Assembly (NCBI RefSeq): GCF_000518865.1
Contig: NZ_KI912515.1
Coordinates: 250,573 to 314,572 of the forward strand
Length of the DNA: 64,000 nt
Reading direction: 5' to 3'
Source: Bacillus sp. J37
GTDB lineage: Bacteria; Bacillota; Bacilli; Bacillales; Bacillaceae
The notes under the pieces are model-generated. The model was not told the DNA's origin and ran no database searches. It worked only from the letters and a program-made list of their open reading frames with translations. Positions 36,825 through 51,679 of this stretch are shown one piece after another. A program made the position numbers and the translations under genes. Within the stretch, counting starts at the first letter, position 1; each line of letters begins with the position of its first letter.

Positions 36825-36864
36825 AAAAGGCTAACCCAATAAGTTGCGTGGGTTAGCCTTTTTG
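36825..36864 (+). terminator. Terminator after the repeat lipoprotein
   Basis: Stem AAGGCTAACCCA / TGGGTTAGCCTT with T run. Confidence 0.92.
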
Positions 36865-36914
36865 TTCGTCCTCTTTTTGTCCATAAAAAATAGGCTCCAC
36901 CAAGTGTGCAGCCC

Positions 36915-37346
36915 TTATAACTTTGTTGAATATCCACGTTGTTGAACGGTTTCCTTAAAAGCATCCATTAAAGCATTGCCGGACAATCCCTGATCTATTA
37001 ATGATTCCAAAAGCTCCTCAGGTCGATACTGCGGTCTTGTTGTTAATAACCGGCCATCAAAAAGTACGGAGATAGATTCATCGAGCACCGTGATTGTATT
37101 AACGCTAGCTGAAATCTTTGCTGGTGCATTACTGACTTTTGAGATTGTCACAAACATCCTTAATGTATGGTTCTCGTCTTTGTGTTTCTCAAAAAAAGAT
37201 AAATATTCCTTTGAAATCAACGCCTCAATTAACCATGAATTTTCGCCATCTTCTTTGTTAATGACAAGACCGTCAAGTAAAGGAATGTTTTTTGCTTCAG
37301 CTGATTGTTCATCAATTTTTAAGCCGACAAGCTTGAACGTTTTCAT
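36915..37346 (-). CDS. ywpF: YwpF-like protein
   Basis: 143 residues beginning MKTFKLVGLKID and containing PLLDGLVINKEDGENSWLIEA, as in the YwpF family (PF14183) of Bacillus, which lies near fabZ/ssbB in B. subtilis. Soluble alpha/beta protein of unknown role. ATG ATG at 37349/37346 both possible. Confidence 0.75.
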   Translation of the reverse strand: MKTFKLVGLKIDEQSAEAKNIPLLDGLVINKEDGENSWLIEALISKEYLSFFEKHKDENHTLRMFVTISKVSNAPAKISASVNTITVLDESISVLFDGRLLTTRPQYRPEELLESLIDQGLSGNALMDAFKETVQQRGYSTKL

Positions 37347-37421
37347 CATGATCATCCCCGCTACCTTATTTTACTCTAGTATACCACAAGGCCACTGTGA
37401 AACCGGAATAGGGGGATGGAA

Positions 37422-37832
37422 TTATTCGGAAATCCTTGATGAATTCTCAACTACACGAATAATTGTATCTTCAATAAGCTTGCGGTGCTTTGTTTTTACC
37501 TGTAAAAGCTGTTGTAAGCTTTGTGTCATTTTTGGATTTTTAATTAAATAGTCAACAACTTGAGAGACAGAGCCATCAGCTTGATACTTCCCGTAAACTT
37601 CATATAAATAATCATTTGTTTGTTCATCTCTGCCAATTAAATGATCAATGCTTACATGAAATGCATCGCTTAATGCTAATAAATAGGACAAATCCGGTTC
37701 CTGTTCACCTGTTTCAAGTCTTGTGATGACAGGTCTGGAAACATTGATTTTCTCCGCTAATTGCTCCTGTGACCATCCGTTTTGCTCTCGATAAAATTTA
37801 AGATTCATTTGGAATTTTTCTAACTCTCTCAT
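37422..37832 (-). CDS. XRE family helix-turn-helix regulator
   Basis: 136 residues: an N-terminal HTH_3 domain (NLKFYREQNGWSQEQLAEKI, VSRPVITRLETGEQEPDLSY) and a C-terminal helical part. The start is uncertain: ATG 37832 and ATG 37811 lack a strong site, and a TTG at 37856 is also open. Likely a local or phase regulator; target unknown. Confidence 0.85.
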   Translation of the reverse strand: MRELEKFQMNLKFYREQNGWSQEQLAEKINVSRPVITRLETGEQEPDLSYLLALSDAFHVSIDHLIGRDEQTNDYLYEVYGKYQADGSVSQVVDYLIKNPKMTQSLQQLLQVKTKHRKLIEDTIIRVVENSSRISE

Positions 37833-38127
37833 TGAACCAACAATTCCCTTCTCCAAGCTTACTGTTATCGTAAAGGAGAAAAGATAGAGGAGATGTTCAA
37901 ATCTAAGACAATATAAGAAATGTTCGTATTACGGACAAACTTAGATATTTAGACCTATTTTAAGAAAATCTCAAAAATATGAAGAAAGATGGAGACAAGC
38001 CACACTTTTTCCACGGATATCGTCATTTTTCGCAATATATCAACACAAATTAACTCTAGCGACCAACTAATATGGAATATACTTACAGTGGGACTTATAG
38101 ATAAAATAAGAGAAATGAGGGTAAACG

Positions 38128-38544
38128 ATGAAAAACTATAAGCTGAAGTCAATCTATTTAAAACAAAATGCAAACAATCCACTACAAGTAAAAGAAAGTA
38201 ATACCCAGGACCTGGTCGTTCTCCGGGTAGGAGATCATGAAGTAGGGACAAATAACTACCATCATTTCCGGGTACCCGTTCATGCGACAGTCGATATTCG
38301 GTATGAAGACACTGACCAAAAAAGCATCCTTAGATTCATCTTTCAGCAAGATCAACGTAGCCTGTCCATTCAGTATTTTACACGGGATAAAGATGAACAA
38401 CACTACATAGACACACCTCTTAATGATGAACTCATTCAATCAAAGGCCTTTCAACGTATTCTTCAGAGTATAAACTTCTCAGGCAAAAACCATTTTTCAT
38501 ACCTTGTTAACCCTATACAGCGATTAAAGGATCAACCTTATTAA
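38128..38544 (+). CDS. Hypothetical protein, 138 residues
   Basis: I do not recognise the family. Soluble, rich in His, Gln and Tyr, with predicted beta strands (VVLRVGDHEV, VPVHATVDIRYED, SILRFIFQQD). A GAGGG site precedes the ATG. Monocistronic, closed by a terminator, located in the interval that holds ywpF-ywpG-ssbB in B. subtilis. Confidence 0.75.
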   Translation: MKNYKLKSIYLKQNANNPLQVKESNTQDLVVLRVGDHEVGTNNYHHFRVPVHATVDIRYEDTDQKSILRFIFQQDQRSLSIQYFTRDKDEQHYIDTPLNDELIQSKAFQRILQSINFSGKNHFSYLVNPIQRLKDQPY

Positions 38545-38566
38545 ACATTCCTAAATAACCTAAAGT

Positions 38567-38600
38567 GAAAAGAGAAGTGTTGAGTGCACTTCTCTTTTTT
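38567..38600 (+). terminator. Terminator after the 138-residue gene
   Basis: Stem AGAGAAGTG / CACTTCTCT with a seven-base loop and T run. Confidence 0.9.
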
Positions 38601-38698
38601 AGTCTTTATTAAACGCTGTAACCCAATTGCATCAACGTATTAACCCTACTATAGCAAGGCAATCTCATTCAAAGAATAAATAAATAATAAAAAAACAC

Positions 38699-38764
38699 TT
38701 GAAATTCAGAATGCGTTTTCATATGATAATAACAAAGGTAACTACTTTTTATTAAAGGTCACTA
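38699..38764 (+). promoter_or_regulatory. Promoter, cre and GntR operator of the first sulfoquinovose operon
   Basis: TTGAAA (38699-38704), 17-base spacer, TATGAT (38722-38727). The reverse strand of 38708-38722 reads ATGAAAACGCATTCT, a full match to the cre consensus, placed between -35 and -10. Two direct repeats, AAAGGTAACTA (38734) and AAAGGTCACTA (38754), 20 bases apart, lie over the start region and are the likely GntR operator. The same set is found at 45601-45667. Confidence 0.82.
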
Positions 38765-38797
38765 TGAATATAACTAACGATGACGGAGGGAAATAAA

Positions 38798-39478
38798 ATG
38801 AAATATTTTTTAGACAGTGCCAAAATTGAGGAAATTAAATACGCATACGAAAATTGGGGGATTGATGGGGTTACAACAAACCCGCGTCATATTATGACAA
38901 GCGGAAAGTCATTCTTAACTGTTTTAGATGAAGTAGGAAGTGAATTTAAAGGTGTAGAAAATTTTCCAATTTCAGCAGAGATCAATCCACATTTGGATGA
39001 TGCAAAAGAAATGGTCCAGGAAGGGAAAAAAATTGCTGCTCTTTCATCAAACTTTATTATAAAAATCCCTTGTACAGAGCCAGGGCTAATCGCTGCTAGA
39101 GAACTAGAAAAAGAGGGAGTTCGGACGAATATAACACTTGTATTTTCTCCTTCACAGGCTTTACAGCCAGCAAGAATTGGAGCGAAATTCGTTTCACCAT
39201 TTGTAGGTTGGAAGGAAAATAGCGGGGAAGATACAAATCAATATATTAAAGATATTGTTGATATCTATAAAGGATATAACTATGATACAGAAATCATTGT
39301 TGCGGCACTTCGTAATGGAAAACAAATTGTTGATGCGGCAAAAGCGGGAGCACACATTGTAACATGCGGATTTGATGTTTATAAAAACAGCTTTTATCAT
39401 GCGTTTACGGACTACGGTCTGGATGTATTCCGTAAGGCTTGGGACAATACGGTACAGGAAGAAATTGTTTTAAAATAA
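38798..39478 (+). CDS. sftT: 6-deoxy-6-sulfofructose transaldolase
   Basis: 226 residues, the short transaldolase/FSA-type barrel. Lys89 in FIIKIPCTEPG is the Schiff-base lysine; MKYFLDSAKIEEIKYA and GVTTNPRH are the strand 1 and loop signatures. In the sulfo-TAL pathway the enzyme moves the dihydroxyacetone part of sulfofructose to glyceraldehyde 3-phosphate or erythrose 4-phosphate, releasing sulfolactaldehyde. The specific role is taken from the neighbours: sulfoquinovosidase, isomerase and sulfolactaldehyde dehydrogenase. Start ATG 38798 after GGAGGG. Confidence 0.88.
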   Translation: MKYFLDSAKIEEIKYAYENWGIDGVTTNPRHIMTSGKSFLTVLDEVGSEFKGVENFPISAEINPHLDDAKEMVQEGKKIAALSSNFIIKIPCTEPGLIAARELEKEGVRTNITLVFSPSQALQPARIGAKFVSPFVGWKENSGEDTNQYIKDIVDIYKGYNYDTEIIVAALRNGKQIVDAAKAGAHIVTCGFDVYKNSFYHAFTDYGLDVFRKAWDNTVQEEIVLK

Positions 39479-39523
39479 GGATGTTTTCGTAAACATTGTT
39501 GCTTTGTAATAAGTGTAGAGGTT

Positions 39524-39651
39524 GTTGATTTGAGCTCCAGGCTGCTCGCTTTCCGTGGGGTGGGCGGTGAGCCTCCTCAACGCTTTGCGTCTGCGGGGTC
39601 TCAACTGTCCCACAGCTCCCACAGGAGTCTCGCATATCCGTTCAAATCAAC
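39524..39651. repeat. MITE-like repeat, family C, inside the sulfoquinovose operon
   Basis: 128 bases with terminal inverted repeats GTTGATTTGA (39524) and TTCAAATCAAC (39641). The inside is GC-rich for this genome (CTCCAGGCTGCTCGC, GGGTGGGCGGTGAGCCTCC) and self-complementary. I recall similar dispersed repeats from other Bacillus genomes. It separates the transaldolase and DUF4867 genes, and may lower or process the operon mRNA. Confidence 0.75.
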
Positions 39652-39728
39652 CATATTTAGTTTTATAAGTACTTATTTAAAACAACAATCTTTTAGAAAA
39701 GAGCCTAAAATAAAAAGGCTATTAAGAT

Positions 39729-39761
39729 CCCTCAAAGATACCTATCTTTAGTCTTTGAGGG
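39729..39761 (+). other. Hairpin upstream of the DUF4867 gene
   Basis: CCCTCAAAGA (39729-39738) and TCTTTGAGGG (39752-39761) form a perfect stem, inside weaker AAGGCT/GGCCTT arms. There is no T run of note, so this may be an mRNA-stabilising or partial terminator hairpin in the operon. Confidence 0.5.
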
Positions 39762-39797
39762 GCCTTTAACCCACAAGTTGTATGGAGGTAAATTCCT

Positions 39798-40469
39798 TTG
39801 GATAAATTTGAAAACCTAAAAACACTAAATAACCATATCCCTTTTTATCATGTGAATGACCCTGCTTTTGCTTCATATGGAAACATAATAGATAATTACA
39901 ATTTCAATGAATTAGATCTATACATGGACCATACAGAAATTCCAAATGAAGGAAATATTTATGTCCCATCTGTTGCAGAAATGGAAGAGACACCAGTTAA
40001 AGAACAAATTCAGAGTCATTTCTATGGTCAACTACCGATCCAAATTGGTTATTGTAATGGTGTTAATTCAACGCTAAATGGTCTAGAATATCATAAGGGC
40101 AGTGAGATTAATTACGCTCTGACAGATATTGTCCTTTTACTAGGAAAATTACAATCTATTAAACATAATCACTATGATTCAAGCGAAATTGAAGCCTTTT
40201 TTATTCCAAAAGGAACAGCGGTAGAATTGTACGGGACAACTCTTCATTTTGCACCATGTAAAATAAGTGATAAAGGTTTTAAAGTTGTTGTGATTTTACC
40301 CGATGGAACGAATCAGCCATTAAATAAAGAGATTGAAAAAAGAACTGAGGAAGATTCGTTATTATTTATGAAGAATAAATGGTTGTTGGCACATCTGGAT
40401 CGAGAAATATTGATTAATCGTGGTGCCTATCCAGGAATAAAGGGAGAAAACATTCAAATTTATTACTAA
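39798..40469 (+). CDS. DUF4867 cupin-like protein
   Basis: 223 residues. The segments LNGLEYHKGSEINYALTDIVL, FFIPKGTAVELYGTTLHFAPC and FKVVVILPDGTN are typical of DUF4867 (PF16161), with a cupin-type metal site made from His/Glu. Genes of this family recur in sulfo-TAL gene clusters of Firmicutes without a firm role; sugar isomerase or mutarotase activity on sulfoquinovose would fit. Start TTG 39798 after TGGAGGT. Confidence 0.85.
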   Translation: MDKFENLKTLNNHIPFYHVNDPAFASYGNIIDNYNFNELDLYMDHTEIPNEGNIYVPSVAEMEETPVKEQIQSHFYGQLPIQIGYCNGVNSTLNGLEYHKGSEINYALTDIVLLLGKLQSIKHNHYDSSEIEAFFIPKGTAVELYGTTLHFAPCKISDKGFKVVVILPDGTNQPLNKEIEKRTEEDSLLFMKNKWLLAHLDREILINRGAYPGIKGENIQIYY

Positions 40470-40507
40470 GACAAATGATGATAAAAAAATAAGGGAGTAT
40501 ATAAATT

Positions 40508-42286
40508 ATGGAGATGTCAAATATCTGGTTCACGCTTTTATCGTGCATTTTCTTTATGGGCTTAGTAGGTTGGATCTCATATTTAAAAACAAAGGGTGAT
40601 GTAAGCGATTCCACAGGTTACTTTTTGGCTGGCCGCGGCTTAACAGGTACCTTTATTGCCGGATCTTTATTGTTAACGAATTTATCGGCAGAACAGTTAA
40701 TTGGTCTTAATGGGCAGGCGTATCGAGCGAACTTATCGAATATGGCATGGGAAGTAACAGCAGGATTTGCTGTTGTCATTATGGCACTCTATTTACTTCC
40801 AAAGTACTTAGGTGGTGCTTTTACAACGTTGCCTGGTTTTTTGAGTTCACGTTATGATGAAGGGGTTCGTCGTCTTTCTGTGTTATTGTTTATGCTTGGT
40901 TATATATTAGTAACAGTTCCTTCTGTTTTATATTCCGGTGCTTTAGCGATATTACAGCTTTTTGATGTACCAGCTATGTTTAATATTTCATATGAGGAAT
41001 CCATTTGGTTAATCGTTTGGGTCGTTGGAATTATCGGAGCTGTTTATGCCATTTTCGGCGGGCTGAAAGCGGTTGCTGTGTCCGATACGATTAATGGGAT
41101 TGGATTATTAATTATCGGTGTTCTTGTTCCGGTTTTAGGGTTTATGACTCTTGGAGACGGAAGCTTTGCAGAAGGTGTGAAAACAGTTGTAAAGGCTAAC
41201 CCGGAGAAACTAAATGCCATTGGTTCCAGTACGGATTCGGTACCATTTGGAACGATTTTTACTGGAATGATTTTAGCGAATCTATTCTATTGGGGTACAA
41301 ACCAATATGTTATTCAGCGGACACTAGGTGCAGCTAGTTTAGCAGAGGGGCAAAAAGGTGTTCTTTACTCAGGGTTTTTTAAGTTGGCCATTCCATTTTT
41401 TATGATGGTTCCAGGTTTAATTGCTTACCAACTTTATGGTGAAGGAATGAACCCGGTTGATTTAGCTTACCCGGCACTAGTAGCAGATGTATTACCATTG
41501 TATATGTCAGGATTCTTTTTAGCTGTCTTACTTGGAGCGGTTTTAAGCTCGTTCAACTCATTATTAAATTCAGCTGCTACCATGTTTGCATTAGATATTT
41601 ACAAACCATTAAAAGAACATGCAACAGATCAAGAATTAATTCGTGTTAGTAAGATTTTTGGAACAATTATTGCGTTAGTATCTTTTTTCATCTCTCCATT
41701 GCTTATGAATGCACCAGACGGATTATGGGATTTAATTCGCCGCTTTACAGGGTTTTTCAACATCCCAATTATCACAATTGTTCTAGTAGGCTTGCTGTCT
41801 AAGCGTATTCCGGCACTTGCTGCGAAGGTCGTTATCGTATTTCACGTAATCACGTATTATATGCTTGTTTGGGGATTAGACCAACTCTTTGGCTTCCAGG
41901 TACCAATTAACTTTATCTATGTATATGCGATTTTATTCTGTGTTGAAGTTGCCATTATGATGGTCATTGGAAAAATGAAGCCGATGAAGGTTCCATATAT
42001 CTTTAAGTCAAATGCACAAGTTAGTCTTGTTCCTTGGAAATATTCATTACTTGTTACCGTTGTGTTATTAACGCTAATCGTCATGACATATGTCGTGTTC
42101 TCACCTATAGGTCTGGCTTATGGTGAAGAAATTGTTTCTCCAATGTTTTGGCCGGTCATGATATTGGTAACAGCTGTTGCCGTTGTTTTAGGTATTTTTT
42201 CAGTGAAGAGTTGGATGAAAAAATACTCCAGCTATCTAACGAATCAACAACCGGAAAGTGAAAATAAAGATAAAAAACTTGCTTAA
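40508..42286 (+). CDS. SSS family transporter, likely sulfoquinovose importer
   Basis: 592 residues, about 14 spans. SSS signatures: YFLAGRGLTGTFIAGSLLLTN near the N-terminus, AIFGGLKAVAVSDTING, YWGTNQYVIQRTLGA and LGAVLSSFNSLLNSAATMFA with sodium-site Ser residues. It resembles the SGLT branch (sugar, inositol) more than the acetate branch at 11302. In this operon it most likely brings in sulfoquinovose or its glyceride with sodium. Confidence 0.88.
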   Translation: MEMSNIWFTLLSCIFFMGLVGWISYLKTKGDVSDSTGYFLAGRGLTGTFIAGSLLLTNLSAEQLIGLNGQAYRANLSNMAWEVTAGFAVVIMALYLLPKYLGGAFTTLPGFLSSRYDEGVRRLSVLLFMLGYILVTVPSVLYSGALAILQLFDVPAMFNISYEESIWLIVWVVGIIGAVYAIFGGLKAVAVSDTINGIGLLIIGVLVPVLGFMTLGDGSFAEGVKTVVKANPEKLNAIGSSTDSVPFGTIFTGMILANLFYWGTNQYVIQRTLGAASLAEGQKGVLYSGFFKLAIPFFMMVPGLIAYQLYGEGMNPVDLAYPALVADVLPLYMSGFFLAVLLGAVLSSFNSLLNSAATMFALDIYKPLKEHATDQELIRVSKIFGTIIALVSFFISPLLMNAPDGLWDLIRRFTGFFNIPIITIVLVGLLSKRIPALAAKVVIVFHVITYYMLVWGLDQLFGFQVPINFIYVYAILFCVEVAIMMVIGKMKPMKVPYIFKSNAQVSLVPWKYSLLVTVVLLTLIVMTYVVFSPIGLAYGEEIVSPMFWPVMILVTAVAVVLGIFSVKSWMKKYSSYLTNQQPESENKDKKLA

Positions 42287-42361
42287 TTAGAGATTGAGTC
42301 TGTCCAGGTTGTCAGACTCTCTTCTATGAGACCAGGTTGAAAGAAGGCGAGAGGATTGAAC

Positions 42362-44401
42362 ATGATCGACATTCATTCAAAAACAGGGATGGAATTAGAA
42401 GTACGTGAGGACGGTTTTGAACTAGTGTGGAATGGAGAAACATTAGTAAAGCATTCAGCCACGAAACCTTTTGTTTACGTAGGATATGGGGAAGAAAAAA
42501 TGGACATGTATCGCGGGAATTTTGATATCCATGATTATGTCATTGAGAGGACAGCTCTTCGATATGCCAAAACACGTGTAAATGAGGATGAAACAGTTTT
42601 CCTATCTCTTAGTAGATTTAAAGGAGAAGATCCGGCAGTAACATTCTCGTTAAAAGTGGAAGATAGTCAAGCGGTATTAAGAGTTGTCGAAACTCAAGAA
42701 AGTGTTAATCGTTTTTGGATTCGTGTTGAAGCGGATCAACATGAAAAAGTGTATGGGTGTGGTGAACAGCTGTCTCATTTTAATATGAGAGGAAAAAACT
42801 TTCCACTTTGGACATCAGAACCAGGTGTTGGCAGAAACAAGAATACCTATGTTACATGGCAGGCGGATGTGAAGGATAAAGCTGGCGGAGATTATTACAA
42901 CACAAATTTCCCGCAGCCAACTTATGTTTCAAGCAATAAATATTATTGTCATGTGGAAACAACAGCATATGCTGATTTCGATTTTCGCCAAGCTGATTTT
43001 CATGAATTACAAGTATGGGAAGTACCAAAGGAAATTATTTTTGAAGGAGCATCCACTTTTCTGAATTTAGTAGAAAAGATCACAGCACGCTTTGGACGTC
43101 AGCCGGAATTACCAGAATGGACGTATGATGGAATTTGGCTTGGAATTCAAGGTGGGACAGATGTTGTAGAGGCTAAGCTGGAGAAGGCGCTTGCTAAGGG
43201 AGTGAAGGTTGGAGGAGTTTGGTGTCAGGATTGGCAAGGAAAGCGGATCACCTCCTTCGGAAAACGATTAATGTGGAACTGGAAATGGAATCCGGAGGAA
43301 TATCCAAATCTTGATAAGAAAATTCATGAGTGGAAAGAAAAAGGTATCCGATTCTTAGGCTATATTAATCCATATGTAGCAGTTGAGGGTGATCTTTATC
43401 AATATGCAAATGAAAAGGGATATTTGGCATTAAATCAACAAGGTGAAACATACCTTGTAGACTTTGGTGAGTTTTATTGCGGAGTTGTGGACTTTACACA
43501 TCCTGAAGCCTTTGAGTGGTATAAAAGTGTCATTAAAGAGAATATGCTAGATTTTGGAATTGACGGCTGGATGGCCGATTTTGGCGAGTATTTACCAACA
43601 GATGTTGTGCTTCATAATGGTGTGGATGCCAAAATCATGCATAATGCGTGGCCTGCGCTATGGGCAAAAGTTAACTATGAGGCAGTTCAAGAAGCAAACA
43701 AATTAGGTGAAGCTGTGTACTTTATGCGCGCAGGCTATACAGGAGTGCAAAAATATTGCACACTTCTTTGGGGCGGCGATCAAAGTGTAGATTTCTCAAT
43801 AGACGATGGCTTAGCTTCAGTCATACCAGCTGCATTATCTTCCGGGATGATCGGCTGTGGCTTACATCATAGTGATATCGGTGGATACACTAGCTTACAC
43901 GGCAATAAGCGTTCAAAGCAATTACTGATGCGATGGGCTGAGATGGGCGCCTTCACACCAGTCATGAGAACACATGAAGGAAATCGTCCGGATGATTGCT
44001 TCCAATATGATGATGATGACGAGTCATTAGATCACTTAGCAAGAATGACACAAATTTATGTGGCCTTATCACCCTATACAAGATCACTTGTAAAGGAAAA
44101 CGCAGAACGCGGGATTCCTGTACAACGCCCGTTATTTATGCACTATGAACAAGATGAAAAAGCTTACCATATTCAATATCAATATTTATATGGCCGGGAT
44201 TTACTTGTTGCTCCAGTCCATCAGGAAAATCAAAAAGAGTGGAATGTCTATTTACCGGAAGATGAATGGGTTCACCTCTGGACCGGTCAGGAATATAAAG
44301 GCGGAGATGTAACAGTAGCTGCGCCAATCGGAAAACCACCTGTATTTTATCGTAAACATTCCGAGTGGAAAGAAACATTTCTGAAGATCGCTAATATGTA
44401 A
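42362..44401 (+). CDS. sftG: Sulfoquinovosidase, GH31 (YihQ-like)
   Basis: 679 residues. It frees sulfoquinovose from sulfoquinovosyl glycerides in the cytosol. The nucleophile is Asp406 (GWMADFGEYLPTD) and the acid/base Asp473 (WGGDQSVDFS), one place beyond Asp405 and Asp472 of E. coli YihQ. All five YihQ residues that read the sulfonate are kept with the same one-residue shift: Gln263, Gln289, Arg302, Trp305 and Tyr509 (the QQRWY set). No signal peptide. ATG 42362 is preferred over TTG 42356. Confidence 0.96.
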   Translation: MIDIHSKTGMELEVREDGFELVWNGETLVKHSATKPFVYVGYGEEKMDMYRGNFDIHDYVIERTALRYAKTRVNEDETVFLSLSRFKGEDPAVTFSLKVEDSQAVLRVVETQESVNRFWIRVEADQHEKVYGCGEQLSHFNMRGKNFPLWTSEPGVGRNKNTYVTWQADVKDKAGGDYYNTNFPQPTYVSSNKYYCHVETTAYADFDFRQADFHELQVWEVPKEIIFEGASTFLNLVEKITARFGRQPELPEWTYDGIWLGIQGGTDVVEAKLEKALAKGVKVGGVWCQDWQGKRITSFGKRLMWNWKWNPEEYPNLDKKIHEWKEKGIRFLGYINPYVAVEGDLYQYANEKGYLALNQQGETYLVDFGEFYCGVVDFTHPEAFEWYKSVIKENMLDFGIDGWMADFGEYLPTDVVLHNGVDAKIMHNAWPALWAKVNYEAVQEANKLGEAVYFMRAGYTGVQKYCTLLWGGDQSVDFSIDDGLASVIPAALSSGMIGCGLHHSDIGGYTSLHGNKRSKQLLMRWAEMGAFTPVMRTHEGNRPDDCFQYDDDDESLDHLARMTQIYVALSPYTRSLVKENAERGIPVQRPLFMHYEQDEKAYHIQYQYLYGRDLLVAPVHQENQKEWNVYLPEDEWVHLWTGQEYKGGDVTVAAPIGKPPVFYRKHSEWKETFLKIANM

Positions 44402-44407
44402 GAGAAG

Positions 44408-44440
44408 AGAAGGTTGTTGAAGCATTCAACAGCCTTTTTG
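44408..44440 (+). terminator. Terminator of the first sulfoquinovose operon
   Basis: Stem AAGGTTGTTGAA / TTCAACAGCCTT (one G-U pair), three-base loop, five T. Confidence 0.9.
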
Positions 44441-44491
44441 GTTCTTGCTTAGGAAACTATTAAATTTTTTGAAATGTGGATAAGTACGGGA

Positions 44492-44655
44492 CATCCAGCT
44501 CCGAAGCACAGGACGTGCAAGTGCAGTTATTGCGACAGGACGTCGCGTTTTTGACTGCCTCTAGGGTCTAGCCACAAATGAATTGAAGACAAAGAACGTC
44601 TTCTATTCATTTGCGTCTTATTTGCCTGTGACTGATCAAGGCGTTTGCGCTTTTG
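44492..44655. repeat. MITE-like repeat, family B, copy 3 (longer variant)
   Basis: Starts ATCCAGCTCCGAAGC, holds two extra hairpins (GCACAGGACGTGC and GCGACAGGACGTCGC), then the core AATGAATTGAAGACAAAG and ACGTCTTCTATTCATT around AAAGAACGTCTTC, and ends AAGGCGTTTGCGC. The core and right end agree with copies 1 and 2; the left part differs, so this is a compound form. Confidence 0.75.
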
Positions 44656-44700
44656 TTAAGCATTCCTTCAAATTTTTGTAACACACACTGTTAAAATTAA

Positions 44701-44748
44701 GGTAGGTATGTATGATATAATAGTCATGATGATTAGTGAATACCTATT
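44701..44748 (+). promoter_or_regulatory. Promoter and possible operator of GntR regulator 1
   Basis: GGTAGGTAT (44701) and ATACCTATT (44740) form an imperfect inverted pair around TATAAT (44716-44721). The GGTA half site recalls the AAAGGTA(A/C)CTA repeats in the two operon promoters, so autoregulation is plausible. Confidence 0.5.
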
Positions 44749-44801
44749 CTAAGTGAAAATAGATGAAGTCTGAAAAGTAGCAGCGGAAAGGAATGGTAGT
44801 A

Positions 44802-45530
44802 TTGGAAACCAAAGTTGATCCCAATAAAAATATCGCTCTATACCTTCAAGTAAAGGATATTTTAATTAAGCGCATACAAGAAAAAATATGGGCACCAAAT
44901 TCATTGATTCCCACCGAACAAGAGTTAATGGAAGAATTTAATGTGAGCCGAACAACATTACGTCAGGCGATTACCATACTTGTACAGGAAGGTTTATTAG
45001 AAAAAAAGCAGGGGAAAGGAACGATTGTAAAATCACAGCAACTAACCGGAAATGGACGATTAAAGGGTTTTGCTGAAGAAGCAATTGAGAAAGGCTTAAC
45101 GCCAAAATCAAAATTACTCCGAATCGAAATGAAAAAGGATTTGTATCATGAAAAATCAATGTTAGATATCCCTGAAAATGAGGAGGTTTTAGTCATTGAA
45201 CGAATACGTTTTGCTGATTCCGAACCAATTGCTATAGAGCGGACATGCTGGCCTTCACATATTGGGAAGCTATTTGAAAATCAAGATTTAGATCGTGCGA
45301 AATTCTATGAAATCTTAGAGGAAAATGGAATTATTTTAAAACGAGCCAAGGAAAAGATCTCAGCAATTAATGCCACATTATATGAAGCGGATTTATTAGG
45401 GATTCGGGGCGGTGAAGCACTGTTAGAAACAGAGAAAATCAGCTATGGTCTCGATGATCGGGCCATTGAATTTTCTAAAGTAAAATTTCGCAGTGATAAA
45501 TACCATTATAATATTGAACTTACTAGATAA
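44802..45530 (+). CDS. GntR/HutC family regulator 1 of sulfoquinovose use
   Basis: 242 residues: winged helix GntR domain (about 12-80; LIPTEQELMEEFNVSRTTLR, QEGLLEKKQGKGTIV) and UTRA ligand domain (about 95-240; EEVLVIERIRFADSEPIAIE). Closely paralogous to the regulator at 47173. Start TTG 44802 fits GGAAAGGA better than ATG 44793, which touches that site. Own promoter and terminator. It probably represses both operons until a sulfosugar intermediate binds. Confidence 0.9.
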   Translation: METKVDPNKNIALYLQVKDILIKRIQEKIWAPNSLIPTEQELMEEFNVSRTTLRQAITILVQEGLLEKKQGKGTIVKSQQLTGNGRLKGFAEEAIEKGLTPKSKLLRIEMKKDLYHEKSMLDIPENEEVLVIERIRFADSEPIAIERTCWPSHIGKLFENQDLDRAKFYEILEENGIILKRAKEKISAINATLYEADLLGIRGGEALLETEKISYGLDDRAIEFSKVKFRSDKYHYNIELTR

Positions 45531-45566
45531 AAAGGCAGACAGTGAGCAAATCATTGTCTGCTTTTT
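45529..45566 (+). terminator. Terminator after GntR regulator 1
   Basis: Stem GCAGACAGTG / CATTGTCTGC (one G-U pair) flanked by A and T runs. Confidence 0.88.
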
Positions 45567-45600
45567 AACGTAGAAAAATGAAATAAAAAAGAAAAAACAC

Positions 45601-45667
45601 TTGAAATATTGTAGACGTTTACATATCATAGAATTAAAGGTACCTACTTTTTGTTGAAAGGTAACTA
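45601..45667 (+). promoter_or_regulatory. Promoter, cre and GntR operator of the second sulfoquinovose operon
   Basis: TTGAAA (45601-45606), 17-base spacer, TATCAT (45624-45629). The reverse strand of 45610-45624 reads ATGTAAACGTCTACA, a cre with one mismatch. Direct repeats AAAGGTACCTA (45636) and AAAGGTAACTA (45657) lie at the same distance behind the -10 as in the first operon, here 21 bases apart. Confidence 0.82.
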
Positions 45668-45790
45668 CGAATAACGTATTGAAAGATCTTATGAAAAATA
45701 AAGAATTGTAGTTTTAAAGATAGTGATCTATTTGTATTTGTAATGATAAATTAATGTTGTGAAGCTTGAAAAAGAAAAGGAGAATAGTTG

Positions 45791-47131
45791 ATGTCATATG
45801 CAGTTGTTTTATACCTTCCGATAGGGAGAAAGACATTCGATTTAGAAGCGGGAGAAACGTATCGCAAGCAAAGTATGAACTGGTTGGAGGAAAGCGGCCA
45901 CACAATTGTGGCGCCAAATGAAATTCTAACCTCAGTAGAAGAGCTTGAACAATTTTTACAAACAAACGCTTCCTCTGAAATTGATACGATCCTTTATCAA
46001 AGTGTTACATTTGCAGACGGAGAATTCATGGTAAAAACGCTTGAGTACTTTAGGGAGCCTGTGATTGTCTGGTCTGTTCGTGAACCAAGTGTAGGTGGAC
46101 GGTTACGATTAAATTCGTTAACAGGCGGCAATAGCACAAGCAATGTTCTACGCAACCACCGCCATCCATTTACGTTTACTTTTGGAAATCCGGATGAGGA
46201 AAAATTACAAACAGAATTGAATCAAAAATTTGATGTGATGCGTGTGTTGAAATCGTTGAATCAATTAAGAATGGGTGTTGTTGGCGATTACCCACCAGGA
46301 TTCTTTTTCTCAGATGCAAACGAAGATGAGTTAAAAAACGTCCTGGGTGTAACGCTTCATAAAATGGATTTACATGAAGCCTTTCATAAATGTGTGGAGC
46401 TGCCTGAGGAAGAATGGATTGGAGAAATCGACCGTGCAGAACAACAGGTTATCGGCTTAAACCGTGAGGATGAGACTGTTAAAAAGTTCGCTCAGTTCTC
46501 AACTTACGTAAAAAAACAAATCGTGGAAGAAAACATTAAGTCAATTGCGATGAGATGTTGGCCTGACTTCTTTAATGAATTAGGTGCAGCACCGTGTTCT
46601 GTTTTATCACAGTTTACGGAAGATGGAATGGTCTCTTCATGTGAGTCTGATATTCATGGATCGATCTCTATGTATATTTTACAAGAATTAACGAGAGGAG
46701 GAGCACCATATTTAGGTGACTTAGTCCATGTAAACGAGGAGAAAAATTCTGTTGTGTTTTGGCATTGCGGGGCTGGTGCTTATTCACTTGCACACCCATC
46801 TACTGGTGCAACAGCCGGCGTACATCCAAATCGAAAAATAGGATTGGCGATGGACTTTGGATTAAAAGCCGGAGAAGTGACGATTTTCCGCGTCAGCCAT
46901 ACACCTGATGGATACAGGCTGCTTGTCATGAAAGGGGAGGCACTCGATGTTGAACAACCTTTTACTGGAACGTCTGTTGAAGTAGCTTTAGCAACAGATG
47001 TTACGAATACTCTTTATGATCTCATGAACTCAGGGTATGAACCGCATTTTGCGTTAGTATATGGCGATGTAACAAAACAACTAATTGAGCTTGGTCGTTT
47101 GCTTCAATTAAACACAGATGTATTTATCTAA
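45791..47131 (+). CDS. sftI: Sulfoquinovose-sulfofructose isomerase, fucose-isomerase-like
   Basis: 446 residues, L-fucose/L-arabinose isomerase fold. Motifs: IAMRCWPDFFNELGAAPCS and CESDIHGSISMYILQELTRG, with the Glu/Asp/His set that binds a divalent metal, then VFWHCGAGAYSLAHPSTGA. In the sulfo-TAL pathway this enzyme turns sulfoquinovose into sulfofructose. Assignment to that substrate rests on the cluster. ATG 45791 fits AAGGAG; TTG 45788 is the alternative. Confidence 0.87.
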   Translation: MSYAVVLYLPIGRKTFDLEAGETYRKQSMNWLEESGHTIVAPNEILTSVEELEQFLQTNASSEIDTILYQSVTFADGEFMVKTLEYFREPVIVWSVREPSVGGRLRLNSLTGGNSTSNVLRNHRHPFTFTFGNPDEEKLQTELNQKFDVMRVLKSLNQLRMGVVGDYPPGFFFSDANEDELKNVLGVTLHKMDLHEAFHKCVELPEEEWIGEIDRAEQQVIGLNREDETVKKFAQFSTYVKKQIVEENIKSIAMRCWPDFFNELGAAPCSVLSQFTEDGMVSSCESDIHGSISMYILQELTRGGAPYLGDLVHVNEEKNSVVFWHCGAGAYSLAHPSTGATAGVHPNRKIGLAMDFGLKAGEVTIFRVSHTPDGYRLLVMKGEALDVEQPFTGTSVEVALATDVTNTLYDLMNSGYEPHFALVYGDVTKQLIELGRLLQLNTDVFI

Positions 47132-47172
47132 AACTTCCCTTATATCTTTACTACATGAAGGGAGTTTTTCCG

Positions 47173-47904
47173 GTGGGAAGTAGAAGCAAACCTGTAAAAA
47201 GTATTTCACTGTATATCCGGGTGAAAGACACGATTATTAAACAGATTCAAGAAAAGAAATGGAAACCAAATGCCATGATCCCCACGGAAAATGAGCTGAT
47301 GAAAGAGTTTGATGTCAGCCGAACAACGATACGGCAGGCAATTTCCATTCTCGTACAAGAGGGCATCTTAGAAAGACAGCAGGGAAAAGGAACCATTGTA
47401 AAACCGCAATTATTTGTCGGAAGCTTATCAAAGCTAAAAGGTTTTGCAGAGGAAGCAAGAGAAAAGGGAATGATACCAAGTTCAAAATTACTGGTAGTAA
47501 CAATGAGTAGAGATTTCCCTTATGAAAAATCGGTCCTTCAGGTACCGATGGATGAGGAGATCTTAGTCATTGAACGCCTGCGTTTTGCCAACCAGGCACC
47601 GATAGCGATTGAGCGCTCTTTTTGGCCCAAGAAAATCGGAGAATTATTAATATGCCAGGATTTAAACGACTCAACCTTTTATGAAATATTAGAGGAAAAC
47701 AATATTTTCTTAAAACATGCAAAGGAAAAAATTACAGCAGTAAATGCAACATTATTTGAGGCTGACTTACTTGGGATACGAGGCGGTCAGGCCATGCTGA
47801 AAATGGAAAGACTCAGCTTCGGCAATGAAGATCAACCAATCGAATTTACCACAACAAAGTTCAGCAGTGAAATATACACATATCATATTGATCTTATGAG
47901 ATAG
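47173..47904 (+). CDS. GntR/HutC family regulator 2 of sulfoquinovose use
   Basis: 243 residues from GTG 47173 (AAGGGAG upstream). Winged helix (MIPTENELMKEFDVSRTTIR) plus UTRA domain. It aligns along its whole length with regulator 1, pointing to a duplication. Unlike regulator 1 it sits inside the operon between isomerase and dehydrogenase, so it would be induced with the pathway and could tune it. Confidence 0.9.
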   Translation: MGSRSKPVKSISLYIRVKDTIIKQIQEKKWKPNAMIPTENELMKEFDVSRTTIRQAISILVQEGILERQQGKGTIVKPQLFVGSLSKLKGFAEEAREKGMIPSSKLLVVTMSRDFPYEKSVLQVPMDEEILVIERLRFANQAPIAIERSFWPKKIGELLICQDLNDSTFYEILEENNIFLKHAKEKITAVNATLFEADLLGIRGGQAMLKMERLSFGNEDQPIEFTTTKFSSEIYTYHIDLMR

Positions 47905-47921
47905 AAGAAGGAGTGGGAATC

Positions 47922-49352
47922 GTGACAACAATCGCAACAGAACAATACGGATTATATATTAATGGACAATGGGAAAAAACAATGGACGTTATGGATGTGT
48001 TAAATAAATATAATCAAGAGGTAACAGCAACTATTTCTATAGCTGAAAAAGAACATGTCGATGCAGCTGTACAAGGTGCAAAGGAAGCACTAAAGACACC
48101 ATTTTCCCCATACGAACGCTATGAAGTGCTAATGAAAGCCGCGGAACTATTAGTCGAACGTCGTGACCAATTTGCAGAAGTGCTTGCATTAGAAGTAGGG
48201 AAACCAATTCGTGAATCTCGGGGGGAAATCGAGCGTGCCGCCCAAACGTTAGTGATTTCGGCTGAAGAAGCGAAACGAATCCATGGGGAAGGTGTCCCGG
48301 TAGAGGCTGCACCTGGCTCTGAAAATAGAATGGCTTTTACAGTACGAGTTCCAGTAGGTGTCATTGCAGCGATTACCCCATTTAATGTACCGGTCAATTT
48401 AGTTTGTCATAAAATCGGTCCAGCCATTGCTGCCGGAAATAGTGTTGTCTTAAAGCCGGCTGAGGTAACACCAATTTGTGCACTGATGTTAGCAGAATTA
48501 ATGGAAGAAGCGGGCTTGCCAAAAGGTCGTTTTCAGCTGTTAACAGGAGACGGTGCGAAAATCGGTGACTGGTTACTGGAAAATAAAGATGTTAATATGT
48601 TTACCTTTACAGGAAGTCCGCGTGTTGGTGAATATATTCGCTCAAAAGCTGGGCTGCGTAAAGTCGCATTAGAATTAGGAAACAATTCAGCAACAGTTGT
48701 TCACCATGATGCAAATGTAGAGCAAGCAGCATCACTCATTGCGCAAAAAAGCTTTAACAATGCCGGGCAGGTTTGTATCTCTGTTCAACGGGTTTATGTT
48801 CATGAAGACGCTTTTGAAAACTTTTTACAAGTTCTAAAGGAAAAAACAGAAACACTAGTTGTTGGCGATCCATCGGATGAAGGAACAGATATAGGACCGA
48901 TGATCCGACTTCGTGAAGCTGAACGTGTAGAAAGCTGGGTAAACGAAGCAGTTGATCAGGGAGCTGTGATTGCATTAGGTGGTAAACGAGATGGAGCGCT
49001 TTATGAGCCTACTATTCTAACAAATGTAAATGATGACATGAAAGTATGTCGACAGGAAGTATTCGGTCCAGTGGTTTCTATAGCAACATATAAAGACATA
49101 GATGAAGTGATTGCGAAAGTAAATGATTCAGATTATGGCCTACAAGCAGGTCTTTTCACAAATGATTTACAGTTTGCAATGAAGGCTGCACGGGAAATTG
49201 AGGTTGGCGGTCTTATCATTAATGATGCTTCGGCTTATCGTGTAGACCATATGCCTTATGGTGGAGTGAAAAACAGTGGTAATGGTAAGGAAGGTCCAAA
49301 ATATGCCATTGAAGAAATGACAGAGGAACGAATTATCGTATTAAACTTATAA
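47922..49352 (+). CDS. sftD: Sulfolactaldehyde dehydrogenase, ALDH family
   Basis: 476 residues. Catalytic Cys285 (NNAGQVCISVQR) and general base Glu251 (VALELGNNSA), NAD-binding FTGSPRVGEYI and ITPFNVPVNLVCHK. In this pathway it oxidises sulfolactaldehyde to 3-sulfolactate. The family also includes lactaldehyde dehydrogenases; the substrate is inferred from the cluster. GTG 47922 fits the GAAGGAG site; GTG 47913 overlaps it. Confidence 0.88.
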   Translation: MTTIATEQYGLYINGQWEKTMDVMDVLNKYNQEVTATISIAEKEHVDAAVQGAKEALKTPFSPYERYEVLMKAAELLVERRDQFAEVLALEVGKPIRESRGEIERAAQTLVISAEEAKRIHGEGVPVEAAPGSENRMAFTVRVPVGVIAAITPFNVPVNLVCHKIGPAIAAGNSVVLKPAEVTPICALMLAELMEEAGLPKGRFQLLTGDGAKIGDWLLENKDVNMFTFTGSPRVGEYIRSKAGLRKVALELGNNSATVVHHDANVEQAASLIAQKSFNNAGQVCISVQRVYVHEDAFENFLQVLKEKTETLVVGDPSDEGTDIGPMIRLREAERVESWVNEAVDQGAVIALGGKRDGALYEPTILTNVNDDMKVCRQEVFGPVVSIATYKDIDEVIAKVNDSDYGLQAGLFTNDLQFAMKAAREIEVGGLIINDASAYRVDHMPYGGVKNSGNGKEGPKYAIEEMTEERIIVLNL

Positions 49353-49391
49353 GTTACCAGAAATAACGAAATTAGGAATGAAGGTGAATGA

Positions 49392-50294
49392 GTGGATTTC
49401 TTCCTTATCCTTATTCCGATCTTTAGTATTTTTGCGCTCGGTTATATAGGACAGAAAAAAATTGGATTTGAAACGAAGACGATATCGACGATGGCTCTTT
49501 ATTTAATGTCACCGGTTTTAGTTTTTCGAACCTTTTATACAACAACTTTTACGATCACCTATGTATATATGGCTTTGTATACATTTGCTCTTTGTTTTTC
49601 ATTAATTGCCGTCGTGTATTTGATTGCTTATATTCGTAAGTATTCGGTTAAAGAAACATGTGGAATGATCTTAGCCTCATCATTTATGAATAATGGAAAT
49701 TACGGGACACCTGTTGTTCTGCTACTATTTGGGGCGGCCGGTCTCGATTATGCGATTATTTTGATGGTCATTCAACAGCTTGTGATGTGTACGGTTGGTG
49801 TATATTACGCCGCAAAAGGAAGTGAAGAAGGAGACGGAGTTCGTGCAGCTATTCGTGCTGTGAAACGAATGCCAATTGTTTATGGGGCAATCTTAGGCTT
49901 TCTCCTTCAAACCTTTCATATTGATCTAGGAAAATCTATGACACAGGCGATTGACATGGTGGCAGATGCTGCCATTCCGACGGTTATGATTGTATTAGGT
50001 ATGCAACTTGCCAAAATTTCTCTTAAAAACTTTGAAAAAGGCAAAGTGTCTCTTTCCCTTGTAACCAAACTAGCTGTCTCACCATGTCTGGCCTACTTAA
50101 TTACGCTGTTCTTGCCAGTTGATGAAATGATCAAGCAAATTATGATCATCATGGCAGCAATGCCAACAGCAGCAAACACGACCATGTATGCTCTGCAATT
50201 CAACACAGAACCAGAATTCGTATCAAGCGCAACACTTGTAAGTACAACACTAAGCTTGGCAACATTACCAGTGACATTTTTCATTGTTTTATGA
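49392..50294 (+). CDS. AEC family transporter, candidate sulfolactate exporter
   Basis: 300 residues, ten spans, of the auxin efflux carrier (PF03547) family. Features include SSFMNNGNYGTPVVLLLFGAAGL at about 95-117 and a repeated half in the C-terminus (MPTAANTTMYALQFN). Start GTG 49392. The pathway must release sulfolactate, and no other exporter is encoded here, so this is the likely route. A GGGACA repeat begins directly after the stop. Confidence 0.85.
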   Translation: MDFFLILIPIFSIFALGYIGQKKIGFETKTISTMALYLMSPVLVFRTFYTTTFTITYVYMALYTFALCFSLIAVVYLIAYIRKYSVKETCGMILASSFMNNGNYGTPVVLLLFGAAGLDYAIILMVIQQLVMCTVGVYYAAKGSEEGDGVRAAIRAVKRMPIVYGAILGFLLQTFHIDLGKSMTQAIDMVADAAIPTVMIVLGMQLAKISLKNFEKGKVSLSLVTKLAVSPCLAYLITLFLPVDEMIKQIMIIMAAMPTAANTTMYALQFNTEPEFVSSATLVSTTLSLATLPVTFFIVL

Positions 50295-50325
50295 ATGGGT
50301 CAGGGGGACAGGTTCCTTGTCCCAG
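50295..50325. repeat. GGGACA-family palindromic repeat
   Basis: GGGTCAGGGGGACAGGTTCC... core directly behind the AEC gene stop, ahead of its terminator. Confidence 0.85.
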
Positions 50326-50352
50326 TTTTCAGGTAATATGTCAGATACGAGT

Positions 50353-50395
50353 AAAAAGGAGCGGAAACTCTCATACCATTTCCGTTCCTTTTTTG
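50353..50395 (+). terminator. Terminator of the second sulfoquinovose operon
   Basis: AAAAAGGAGCGGAAA pairs with TTTCCGTTCCTTTTTT (one G-U pair). Confidence 0.9.
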
Positions 50396-50761
50396 TTTGA
50401 AAAAATCACTTACTCCCAGGCCTTTCAATGGTTAATTGTCAAAGGAAAGCTACTAAGTTGGAGCGGATTTAAGTGTGGATCGCTACTGCCCGTTAAGAGT
50501 GGGATAAAATTCTTACTGAAGTGATTTAATTTCATGATAAATAGATGTTTTCAACAAGCAGGCAAGTTGATCTAGTGGCACATCTTTTTGTATGTGGCTA
50601 TATATTGAAATAAGGAAGGAATTTAGATTAGGTATCTTGAAGTTTTAAGTATGCTGTAGCATGTAGAATAGGAGACTGAAAATTTACCTTTATTCCAAAT
50701 CATTGTCAATGAACGATCCTGGCAGTTTAATCATTAACTTTTATAGTGAGGTGGTGGCAAT
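50396..50761 (+). other. Spacer before the patatin gene
   Basis: 366 bases without a gene I can support. The last part holds GTGAGGTGGTGGC, the ribosome site of the patatin gene. No clear promoter pair or RNA fold seen. Confidence 0.4.
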
Positions 50762-51679
50762 TTGAAGGCAGATGCCGTTTTTGAAGGTGGCGGGGCTAGG
50801 GGAATGGCTTTTATTGGAGCGATTCAAGCAATGGAAGAGGAAAAAGTAGAATGGGAACGATTGGCTGGAACATCAGCGGGAGCATTAATTGCTTCTCTTT
50901 TGGCGAGCGGTTACACAAGCTATGAAATTAGAGATCGTCTAAGTGTACTCGATTTTTCAAAGCTCCGCGGTAAGACAATTTTGCATCGAATTCCCGTTTT
51001 CGGCATTCTTTTAGAATTTATGATTCATCTTGGACTTTATAAAAACGATTATTTAGAATCGTGGGTGGATTCACTTCTTCTAGAAAAAGGCATTAAGACA
51101 TTCGCGGACCTGCCAGATGGGAAGTTGAAGATTATTGCATCTGATATTTCGAATGGGCATATGCTTATTTTGCCAGATGATTTGGATCGCTACAGGATGA
51201 CTCCTGCTGATTTAAATATTTCAACTGCGGTTATGATGAGTGCATCTTTGCCATTTTTCTACCGTCCGGTTATATGGAAAACAAAAGACCGTAAAAAATC
51301 GTACATTTTAGATGGCGGTTTACTAAGTAACTTTCCAATATGGTTATTTGATACTAAAAACCCTCGGTTTCCAACATTCGGCTTCCGTTTTGTAAAAGAT
51401 GAAGTGAACATAGATCCAGTTATACCTACGCCAATCCACCTTATTAAAAATATTTATAAAACGATGCTTCAAGCCCATGATTTGCGACATTTAAACGAAG
51501 AAACGCTTGAACGCACAATTCAAATTCCGACTAGAGACATCAACACAACTGATTATGAACTGACTGAGGATGAAATCGATTTTCTCTATAAATCAGGTTA
51601 TACTTCAACAAAAGAATTTTTATCTAAGTGGGATTTTGAACAATATAAGGTCAAAAGAATGCAAAGAAAAAATAGATAA
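50762..51679 (+). CDS. Patatin-like phospholipase
   Basis: 305 residues. The Ser-Asp dyad is complete: Ser38 in GTSAG and Asp184 in DGGLLSNFP, with the oxyanion loop FEGGGARGMAF at the start. Probably a cytosolic or membrane-associated lipid acyl hydrolase. Start TTG 50762 gives the family start KADAVFEGGG. It converges on the SleB-like gene. Confidence 0.92.
   Translation: MKADAVFEGGGARGMAFIGAIQAMEEEKVEWERLAGTSAGALIASLLASGYTSYEIRDRLSVLDFSKLRGKTILHRIPVFGILLEFMIHLGLYKNDYLESWVDSLLLEKGIKTFADLPDGKLKIIASDISNGHMLILPDDLDRYRMTPADLNISTAVMMSASLPFFYRPVIWKTKDRKKSYILDGGLLSNFPIWLFDTKNPRFPTFGFRFVKDEVNIDPVIPTPIHLIKNIYKTMLQAHDLRHLNEETLERTIQIPTRDINTTDYELTEDEIDFLYKSGYTSTKEFLSKWDFEQYKVKRMQRKNR

What the first reader, a model, noticed from the sequence alone, without database searches (positions are those of the whole stretch)
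38699..50395. Complete transaldolase-type sulfoquinovose (sulfosugar) pathway in two coordinated operons
Seen: a GH31 enzyme with the catalytic aspartates and all five sulfonate-reading residues of YihQ (Gln263, Gln289, Arg302, Trp305, Tyr509), an FSA-type transaldolase with Schiff-base Lys89, a fucose-isomerase-like enzyme, an aldehyde dehydrogenase, a DUF4867 protein, an SSS importer, an AEC transporter and two GntR regulators. Known: these enzymes make up the sulfo-TAL route (sulfoquinovose to sulfofructose to sulfolactaldehyde to sulfolactate) of some Firmicutes. Inferred: this strain can use the plant sulfolipid head group and excretes sulfolactate.
Basis: partly seen in the sequence, partly recalled or inferred. 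Interest (0 to 1): 0.85.

Follow-up and report, generated by a model that had tools for sequence, protein, structure and literature searches.

The report
Sulfosugar-eating gene cluster with twin repressors
This Metabacillus genome carries the whole gene set of a known bacterial route that would let it eat sulfoquinovose, the sugar of plant sulfolipids, and likely excrete sulfolactate, together with a duplicated pair of predicted repressors that may sense two different signals.

Summary
Window 38699-50395 carries a complete sulfo-TAL (sulfofructose transaldolase) cluster: sftT, DUF4867, an SSS importer, a GH31 sulfoquinovosidase, GntR R1, sftI, GntR R2, a sulfolactaldehyde dehydrogenase and an AEC carrier. 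The enzymes match the characterised Priestia set by family cut-off, solved relative or active-site residues, so this is a further member of a known pathway.

The regulation is what I found no report of in the papers I could search. (1) Both operon promoters carry tandem GGTWRYWACC-like dyads 20-21 bp apart. These are enriched before sftI (32 of 68 loci, 0.83 expected; 13 of 43 after collapsing close relatives) and sftT (11 of 21, 0.30 expected; 6 of 12), with none before the dehydrogenase (0 of 62) or AEC gene (0 of 44). (2) R1 and R2 look like one duplication kept in the Metabacillus lineage. R1 has changed at three otherwise conserved columns, all at ligand-contacting positions of NagR; R2 keeps those but lost a conserved arginine. 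I infer shared operators and different effectors.

Two high-copy repeats have inserted in the cluster here, one between sftT and sftX. Growth on sulfoquinovose and sulfolactate release are untested.

The parts
38699..38727 (+). promoter-like site of the sftT operon (TTGAAA-17-TATGAT) with a cre-like site (38708-38722) between the hexamers
   Evidence: cre consensus recalled
38737..38766 (+). predicted tandem operator (GGTAACTACT, GGTCACTATG; starts 20 bp apart)
38798..39478 (+). SftT, sulfofructose transaldolase (226 aa; D6, E61, K89, N111, S133, W138)
39479..39713 (.). strain-specific insertion of a high-copy short repeat, flanked by TAAAATAA on both sides (read by eye); absent from L020 and L021
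39798..40469 (+). SftX/SqvB, DUF4867 cupin metalloprotein (E97, H99, E103, H150 metal site kept)
   Evidence: PMC11968277 passage
40508..42286 (+). SSS-family sodium:solute symporter, likely importer of sulfoquinovose or its glycosides
   Evidence: NF007790, 718.8 bits, cut-off 401; substrate inferred
42362..44401 (+). SftG, GH31 sulfoquinovosidase
44407..44439 (+). terminator-like hairpin after the sftT operon
44440..44660 (.). second strain-specific insertion of another high-copy repeat (boundaries approximate)
44793..45530 (+). R1, GntR/HutC (UTRA) regulator with altered effector pocket (T213, S228, V230)
45601..45629 (+). promoter-like site of the sftI operon (TTGAAA-17-TATCAT) with a weaker cre-like site at 45609-45623
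45639..45669 (+). predicted tandem operator (GGTACCTACT, GGTAACTACG; starts 21 bp apart)
45791..47131 (+). SftI/SqvD, sulfoquinovose isomerase
47155..47904 (+). R2, GntR/HutC (UTRA) regulator, paralogue of R1 with the common residues at 213, 228 and 230 but without R110 and R233 (R1 numbering)
47913..49352 (+). SftD/SlaB, sulfolactaldehyde dehydrogenase (F157-N158-V159, H166, N282, C288)
   Evidence: PMC10599462 passage
49392..50294 (+). AEC-family carrier, likely sulfolactate exporter
   Evidence: PF03547; role inferred

Best explanation
The cluster encodes every enzyme of the sulfo-TAL route, which would take up sulfoquinovose (SQ) or its glycosides and likely excrete sulfolactate, under predicted control of two paralogous GntR/HutC repressors at shared tandem operators. 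Predicted flow: the SSS symporter imports SQ or SQ-glycerol; GH31 SftG releases SQ; SftX (function unproven in the papers seen) may open or mutarotate the sugar; SftI makes sulfofructose; SftT moves the glycerone unit to glyceraldehyde-3-phosphate, giving fructose-6-phosphate for growth and sulfolactaldehyde; SftD oxidises the latter to sulfolactate; the AEC carrier exports it. Predicted control: without inducer, regulator dimers sit on two dyads just downstream of each promoter, and CcpA may act on the cre-like site between the promoter hexamers. R2, in the usual position and with the usual residues at the three sugar-contacting columns, likely answers the ancestral inducer (SQ, sulfofructose or a related sulfonate). 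R1, a separate unit with a changed pocket, likely answers a different ligand or the same one at another level. The confidence given is for the pathway; I put about 0.35 on two different signals.
For: Enzymes. Operators: of L020-L099 genes with at least 300 bp upstream, tandem score 16 or more before I in 32 of 68 (0.83 expected from shuffles), T 11 of 21 (0.30), X 7 of 54 (0.60), G 1 of 54, D 0 of 62, E 0 of 44, S 0 of 37; after grouping loci at 90% SftI identity, I 13 of 43 groups, T 6 of 12, D 0 of 37, E 0 of 20. With the consensus already fixed, L137 had exactly two such sites on the cluster's strand of 19.9 kb, before T and before I. HutC sites mostly have 4 nt between GT and AC (PMC4494728 passage), as here. 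Regulators: R1 clade SH-aLRT 98, R2 clade 99. NagR R133/R135/E145/Y167/E222 equivalents are invariant in the 78 sequences compared; columns 213 and 228 are M and T in 61 of 61 others and 8 of 8 R2 but changed in 9 of 9 R1; column 230 is T in all of those and changed in 8 of 9 R1. Of 79 columns conserved in the rest, R1 changed 3, all among 11 pocket columns (P 0.002).
Against: No expression, growth or binding data. The consensus was chosen after looking at the same loci, so only the internal controls and L137 guard against circularity. A whole-genome tandem pattern gives 5 matches against 3 for the reversed control, and the 64-kb window has three further places of equal score (27091, 35090, 37021), so the pattern is not specific by itself. 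The window's own T site scores 16, a level reached in 4.6% of random 316-bp stretches. Its core differs from the general HutC consensus GTMTAKAC quoted in PMC4494728. Most I groups (30 of 43) lack a site at this score. No tandem site was found before R1 (score 13). R1 and R2 recognition helices differ at one residue, which fits shared operators but also plain redundancy. R2 also differs at pocket column 170 (T or N; K in all R1, variable elsewhere), so 'R2 keeps the ancestral pocket' is not strict. Element A could weaken transcription between sftT and sftX. DUF4867 showed no detectable activity on SQ or sulfofructose in PMC11968277.
Confidence: 0.9

Rival explanations
1. The pathway is as described, but R1 and R2 are redundant copies: the pocket changes are drift and both answer the same inducer with similar affinity.
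For: HTH 71% identical with near-matching recognition helices; 63 of 84 loci have a single regulator in the stretch held and 9 have none.
Against: Both copies are kept in all nine Metabacillus-lineage loci of the tree, and R1's changes at conserved columns fall only on ligand-contacting positions (P 0.002).
Confidence: 0.35
2. R1 is no longer an SQ-type sensor: it may regulate other genes or be a constitutive repressor, and R2 alone controls the cluster.
For: R1 looks like its own transcription unit (signals read by eye) and has an altered pocket; no tandem site lies before it (score 13).
Against: R1 keeps the phosphate-clamp arginines R137/R139, lies in the cluster in the nine loci (in L102 with about 5.5 kb between it and sftI), and nearly shares its recognition helix with R2.
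Confidence: 0.2
3. The cluster is complete on paper but poorly functional in this strain because a high-copy repeat of about 235 bp sits between sftT and sftX.
For: The insertion is absent from L020 and L021, its family is spread in the genome, and the spacer 39480-39800, which holds it and a conserved hairpin, folds strongly (z -5.08).
Against: The reading frames are open and a GGAGG stretch before sftX is intact; the downstream genes could be transcribed through it.
Confidence: 0.1
4. The enzymes act on a different sulfosugar (for example sulfofucose or sulforhamnose) rather than SQ.
For: Substrate was not measured.
Against: Identity to the SQ-characterised set, the equivalog-level match to SftI and the full SQase sulfonate pocket.
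Confidence: 0.03

Closest known systems
Sulfo-TAL cluster of Priestia megaterium DSM 1804 (Liu et al. 2020) and P. aryabhattai SOS1 (Frommeyer et al. 2020)
   Same: L137, the P. megaterium-type cluster I read, has SftT, DUF4867, SQase, SftI, GntR, dehydrogenase and AEC in the same order and predicted tandem operators before both T and I
   Different: L137 has one regulator, no SSS gene between DUF4867 and SQase, and a 473-aa ORF upstream that I take by eye for another transporter (not searched). The two original papers were not readable here; I know them from later papers' passages and recall.
Sulfo-TAL of Agathobacter/Eubacterium rectale (PMC11968277)
   Same: SftG, SftI, SftT and DUF4867 (SftX)
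   Different: There sulfolactaldehyde is reduced to DHPS; here an aldehyde dehydrogenase points to sulfolactate.
Sulfo-EMP2 clusters of Bacillota
   Same: Clusters without a transaldolase in the stretch held share relatives of SftI, DUF4867, SQase, SSS, GntR, dehydrogenase and AEC and often the same predicted tandem operator
   Different: No transaldolase; extra space around sftI. I infer kinase and aldolase from spacing and PMC9594981 and did not check them; a few of these loci may only be cut short.
NagR/YvoA of Bacillus subtilis (GntR/HutC)
   Same: Family by sequence (about 100 bits), GT-N4-AC spacing, arginine clamp R133/R135 kept as R137/R139
   Different: Other pocket residues differ; the ligand is expected to be a sulfonate, not GlcNAc-6-phosphate.

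Membership tests
sulfo-TAL pathway (aerobic Bacilli type) | FSA-like sulfofructose transaldolase with D6/E61/K89, N111/S133 and W138 | tested here: met
   residues from passages of PMC11659671
sulfo-TAL pathway (aerobic Bacilli type) | FucI-like sulfoquinovose isomerase SftI/SqvD | tested here: met
   NF048012, 818.9 bits over cut-off 700
sulfo-TAL pathway (aerobic Bacilli type) | GH31 sulfoquinovosidase with sulfonate-reading residues | tested here: met
   YihQ sulfonate residue list recalled, D405 in a PMC11968277 passage
sulfo-TAL pathway (aerobic Bacilli type) | sulfolactaldehyde dehydrogenase with the His/Asn pair of Bm SlaB | tested here: met
   H166, N282, F157-N158-V159 match H164, N280, F155-N156-V157 with a constant offset of 2 (PMC10599462); NAD dependence not testable
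sulfo-TAL pathway (aerobic Bacilli type) | DUF4867 protein with 2His-2Glu metal site | tested here: met
   PMC11968277
sulfo-TAL pathway (aerobic Bacilli type) | growth on SQ with sulfolactate release | not testable with these tools
   needs culture
GntR/HutC repressors | GntR HTH plus UTRA domain | tested here: met
   both domains over cut-off in both regulators
GntR/HutC repressors | operator dyad with 4 nt between GT and AC | tested here: inconclusive
   such dyads are enriched at both operon heads, but the core differs from the general HutC consensus and no binding was measured
sulfo-EMP2 | SF kinase and SF-1-phosphate aldolase next to SftI | tested here: not met
   no further co-directional gene-sized ORF lies between the nine named genes

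The most novel reading that the evidence does not exclude
Metabacillus runs its sulfosugar pathway with two repressors born from one gene: R2 keeps the ancestral sugar-contacting residues, and R1 has been retuned at three ligand-contacting positions to a second signal (for example a downstream sulfonate or a sugar phosphate), so that shared tandem operators compute a two-input decision.
Probability: 0.35. Interest if true: 0.55.

Novelty: new variant of a known kind. Interest (0 to 1): 0.4.

Why it matters
The pathway is established, so one more genome adds distribution (8 of 21 genomes of the genus over the SftI cut-off; 38 of 299 sampled in the order at E 1e-150 or better). What can be used at once is a predicted operator for the Bacillota sulfosugar regulator, found at transaldolase and non-transaldolase clusters alike, and a natural pair of diverged sensors that makes the unknown inducer of sulfoglycolysis in Bacilli testable.

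Tried and rejected
A tandem-pattern search of the whole genome for further regulon members gave three other places. One (C94) lies, by eye, among spore-germination-like reading frames; the other two (C17, C18) were not examined, so I claim no wider regulon. The idea that two operator-bearing operons are special to Metabacillus was dropped: L137 also has a site before sftI. A sulfolactate lyase was looked for through PF04295 only; one 499-aa hit, not pursued. Rfam gave nothing at the gathering threshold for 36000-51000. Transfer by composition: GC shows no break at the cluster. An empty site was sought in G013, which has the nearest patatin gene (94%) of the genomes without an SftI match; its stretch L139 showed no fabZ-side genes in the roughly 13 kb before it, so no clean empty site was obtained. 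Enzyme trees were not built. The genome scan kept 80 of 240 relatives, so counts over L020-L099 are of the best-matching third. Rows dropped before the regulator comparison: six duplicates (L100, L101, L103), then thirteen distant, long or differently placed rows (L080, L082 twice, L086-L089, L093, L097, L098, L105 R2, L030 and L032 second copies), leaving 78 of 97; L106 and L138 remained and are identical to L061 and L025. The dropped L105 R2 was checked later: M213, T228, T230, T170, C233 as in R2, but R110 kept.

On 'no report found': searches were made, in an open-licence library without most subscription journals. Of the listed papers I opened passages of five (PMC12890257, PMC9594981, PMC11968277, PMC11659671, PMC10599462); the rest, among them papers on E. 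coli CsqR, were seen as listings only. PMC11659671 mentions a repressor candidate in related gut clusters, so that such clusters have regulators is in print.
Full report
What is there. The window lies in a 5.3-Mb genome whose nearest named relatives at this place are Metabacillus halosaccharovorans (L020) and M. niabensis (L021), which carry the same cluster between the same neighbours. Nine co-directional genes run from 38798 to 50294. Family searches name them TAL_FSA, DUF4867, sodium:solute symporter, GH31, GntR-UTRA, Fucose_iso_C, GntR-UTRA, aldehyde dehydrogenase and Mem_trans/AEC. NCBIfam gives the sulfoquinovose isomerase equivalog (818.9 bits, cut-off 700) and, for the GH31, NF007746 (1055.6 bits, cut-off 553), listed as alpha-glucosidase PRK10426, which I recall as the YihQ model. 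The transaldolase and the dehydrogenase pass no shown NCBIfam cut-off.

Are they the sulfo-TAL enzymes? The transaldolase aligns without gaps to BmSF-TAL (8bc3, 433 bits) and keeps D6, E61, K89, N111, S133 and W138 (residue roles from passages of PMC11659671). DUF4867 keeps the 2His-2Glu metal site seen in B. megaterium SqvB, 9gyy. The dehydrogenase carries the His/Asn pair and the Phe-Asn-Val tripeptide that PMC10599462 describes for B. megaterium SlaB; other matches in this genome are at most 38% identical. SftI has no solved relative by sequence. I conclude that the enzymes are those of the known pathway. That the strain grows on SQ and excretes sulfolactate is inferred.

Transcription units and operators. 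Promoter-like sites 38699-38727 and 45601-45629 are among five that match 10 of 12 positions, but the region as a whole has no more such sites than shuffles (37 against 36.7), so they rest on position and on conservation. Each has a cre-like site between the hexamers: 10 of 10 consensus positions at T, 9 of 10 at I (consensus recalled). Over relatives, perfect sites occur before T in 7 of 21 and before X in 21 of 54, against 1.3% of background stretches and 0 of 70 before D. The I site is weaker evidence: none of 76 is perfect, and 22 of 76 reach 9 of 10 where background gives 16.5%. Directly downstream of both promoters are two dyads resembling GGTWRYWACC, 20 or 21 bp apart. Counted over L020-L099 with dinucleotide shuffles as control, tandem score 16 or more occurs before I in 32 of 68 (0.83 expected), T 11 of 21 (0.30), X 7 of 54 (0.60), G 1 of 54 (0.43), R1-type genes 2 of 71 (0.72), and D, E and S 0 of 62, 44 and 37. 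Many of these loci are close relatives; grouped at 90% SftI identity the counts are I 13 of 43, T 6 of 12, D 0 of 37, E 0 of 20. The consensus was set on these loci, so the counts are not blind; the genes without sites and L137 (exactly two sites on the cluster's strand of 19.9 kb, before T and before I) are the checks. PMC4494728 states that most HutC sites have 4 nt between GT and AC, which fits, although the core here differs from the general consensus it quotes. Specificity is limited: 5 whole-genome matches of a tandem pattern against 3 for the reversed control, and three other places of equal score in the window.

The twin regulators. In the 84 non-duplicate loci (from the best 80 of 240 found plus unnamed genus genomes and L137), 25 hold a transaldolase in the stretch and 59 do not. 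Two regulators occur in 11 of 25 and 1 of 59; overall 63 loci show one, 12 two and 9 none. Eight of the eleven are Metabacillus-lineage loci with R1 before sftI and R2 after it (in L102 about 5.5 kb lies between R1 and sftI); L037 (Neobacillus mesonae) has two regulators in a related layout; L030 and L032 have a second, differently placed one about 7 kb downstream. In the tree (quick method, SH-aLRT only) R1 and R2 of the Metabacillus lineage form clades of nine each with support 98 and 99 and join with the two Neobacillus copies at 89, which I read as one duplication. In the 78 regulators compared the residues matching NagR R133, R135, E145, Y167 and E222 are invariant; R133 and R135 bind the effector's phosphate in NagR (passage of PMC4333415). 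R1 differs from all others at 213 and 228 and, in 8 of 9, at 230, matching NagR I209, A224 and S226, all named there as ligand contacts. R2 keeps the common residues at these three but has lost R233 in 9 of 9 and R110 in 8 of 9 (L105, left out of the main comparison, keeps R110), and is T or N at pocket column 170 in 8 of 8 (T also in L105), a column that is K in R1 and variable elsewhere. The second Neobacillus copy has S110 and C233. Of 79 columns conserved in the remaining sequences, R1 changed three, all within the 11 pocket columns (hypergeometric P 0.002); R2 changed four of 81, none in the pocket. The DNA-recognition helices differ at one position in the window pair. The reading that they share operators but not effectors is inference.

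Strain-specific insertions. Against L020 and L021 the window has about 235 extra bases between sftT and sftX, flanked by TAAAATAA on both sides (read by eye), and about 200 between the sftG terminator and the R1 promoter region. Both are members of high-copy families: 40 and 44 matches in this genome, each from 40 scored candidates of 60 and 114, so lower bounds. The spacer 39480-39800, which holds the first repeat and a conserved hairpin, folds strongly (z -5.08). The effect on expression of sftX, the importer and the SQase is unknown.

Placement. In five of the eight genus genomes with SftI over the cut-off the cluster lies in the fabZ/orf381/ssb/snf neighbourhood, but on different sides of ssb (G000, G005, G011 against G012, G020); in G006, G014 and G015 none of these neighbours was found in the stretches read. 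This suggests movement within the genus.

Verdict. Papers: passages only of PMC12890257, PMC9594981, PMC11968277, PMC11659671, PMC10599462, PMC4333415 and PMC4494728; Frommeyer 2020, Liu 2020 and Snow 2023 were not seen.

Noticed in passing
window 39479-39713: High-copy repeat (151-base query, 40 matches in the genome) inserted between sftT and sftX with an apparent 8-bp target duplication.
   Followed up: partly
window 44440-44660: A second, different high-copy repeat family (44 matches) inserted between the sftG terminator and the R1 promoter region; holds a 21-nt inverted repeat with arms at 44570-44590 and 44598-44618.
   Followed up: partly
window 39724-39766: Hairpin (CCCTCAAAGA ... TCTTTGAGGGG) between sftT and sftX, nearly the same in L020 and L021; could be a partial terminator or processing site that sets sftT apart from downstream genes.
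   Followed up: no
L034-L036, L045-L047, L049, L051-L053, L055-L060 and others: Bacillota clusters without a transaldolase keep the same importer, SQase, isomerase, regulator, dehydrogenase and carrier around what looks like a different cleavage module, many with the same predicted operator: the pathway core seems to be swapped inside a constant frame.
   Followed up: partly
G018:C16:165-842: A genus genome with an 80% identical sftT at a contig edge but no SftI match over the cut-off, possibly an assembly gap.
   Followed up: no
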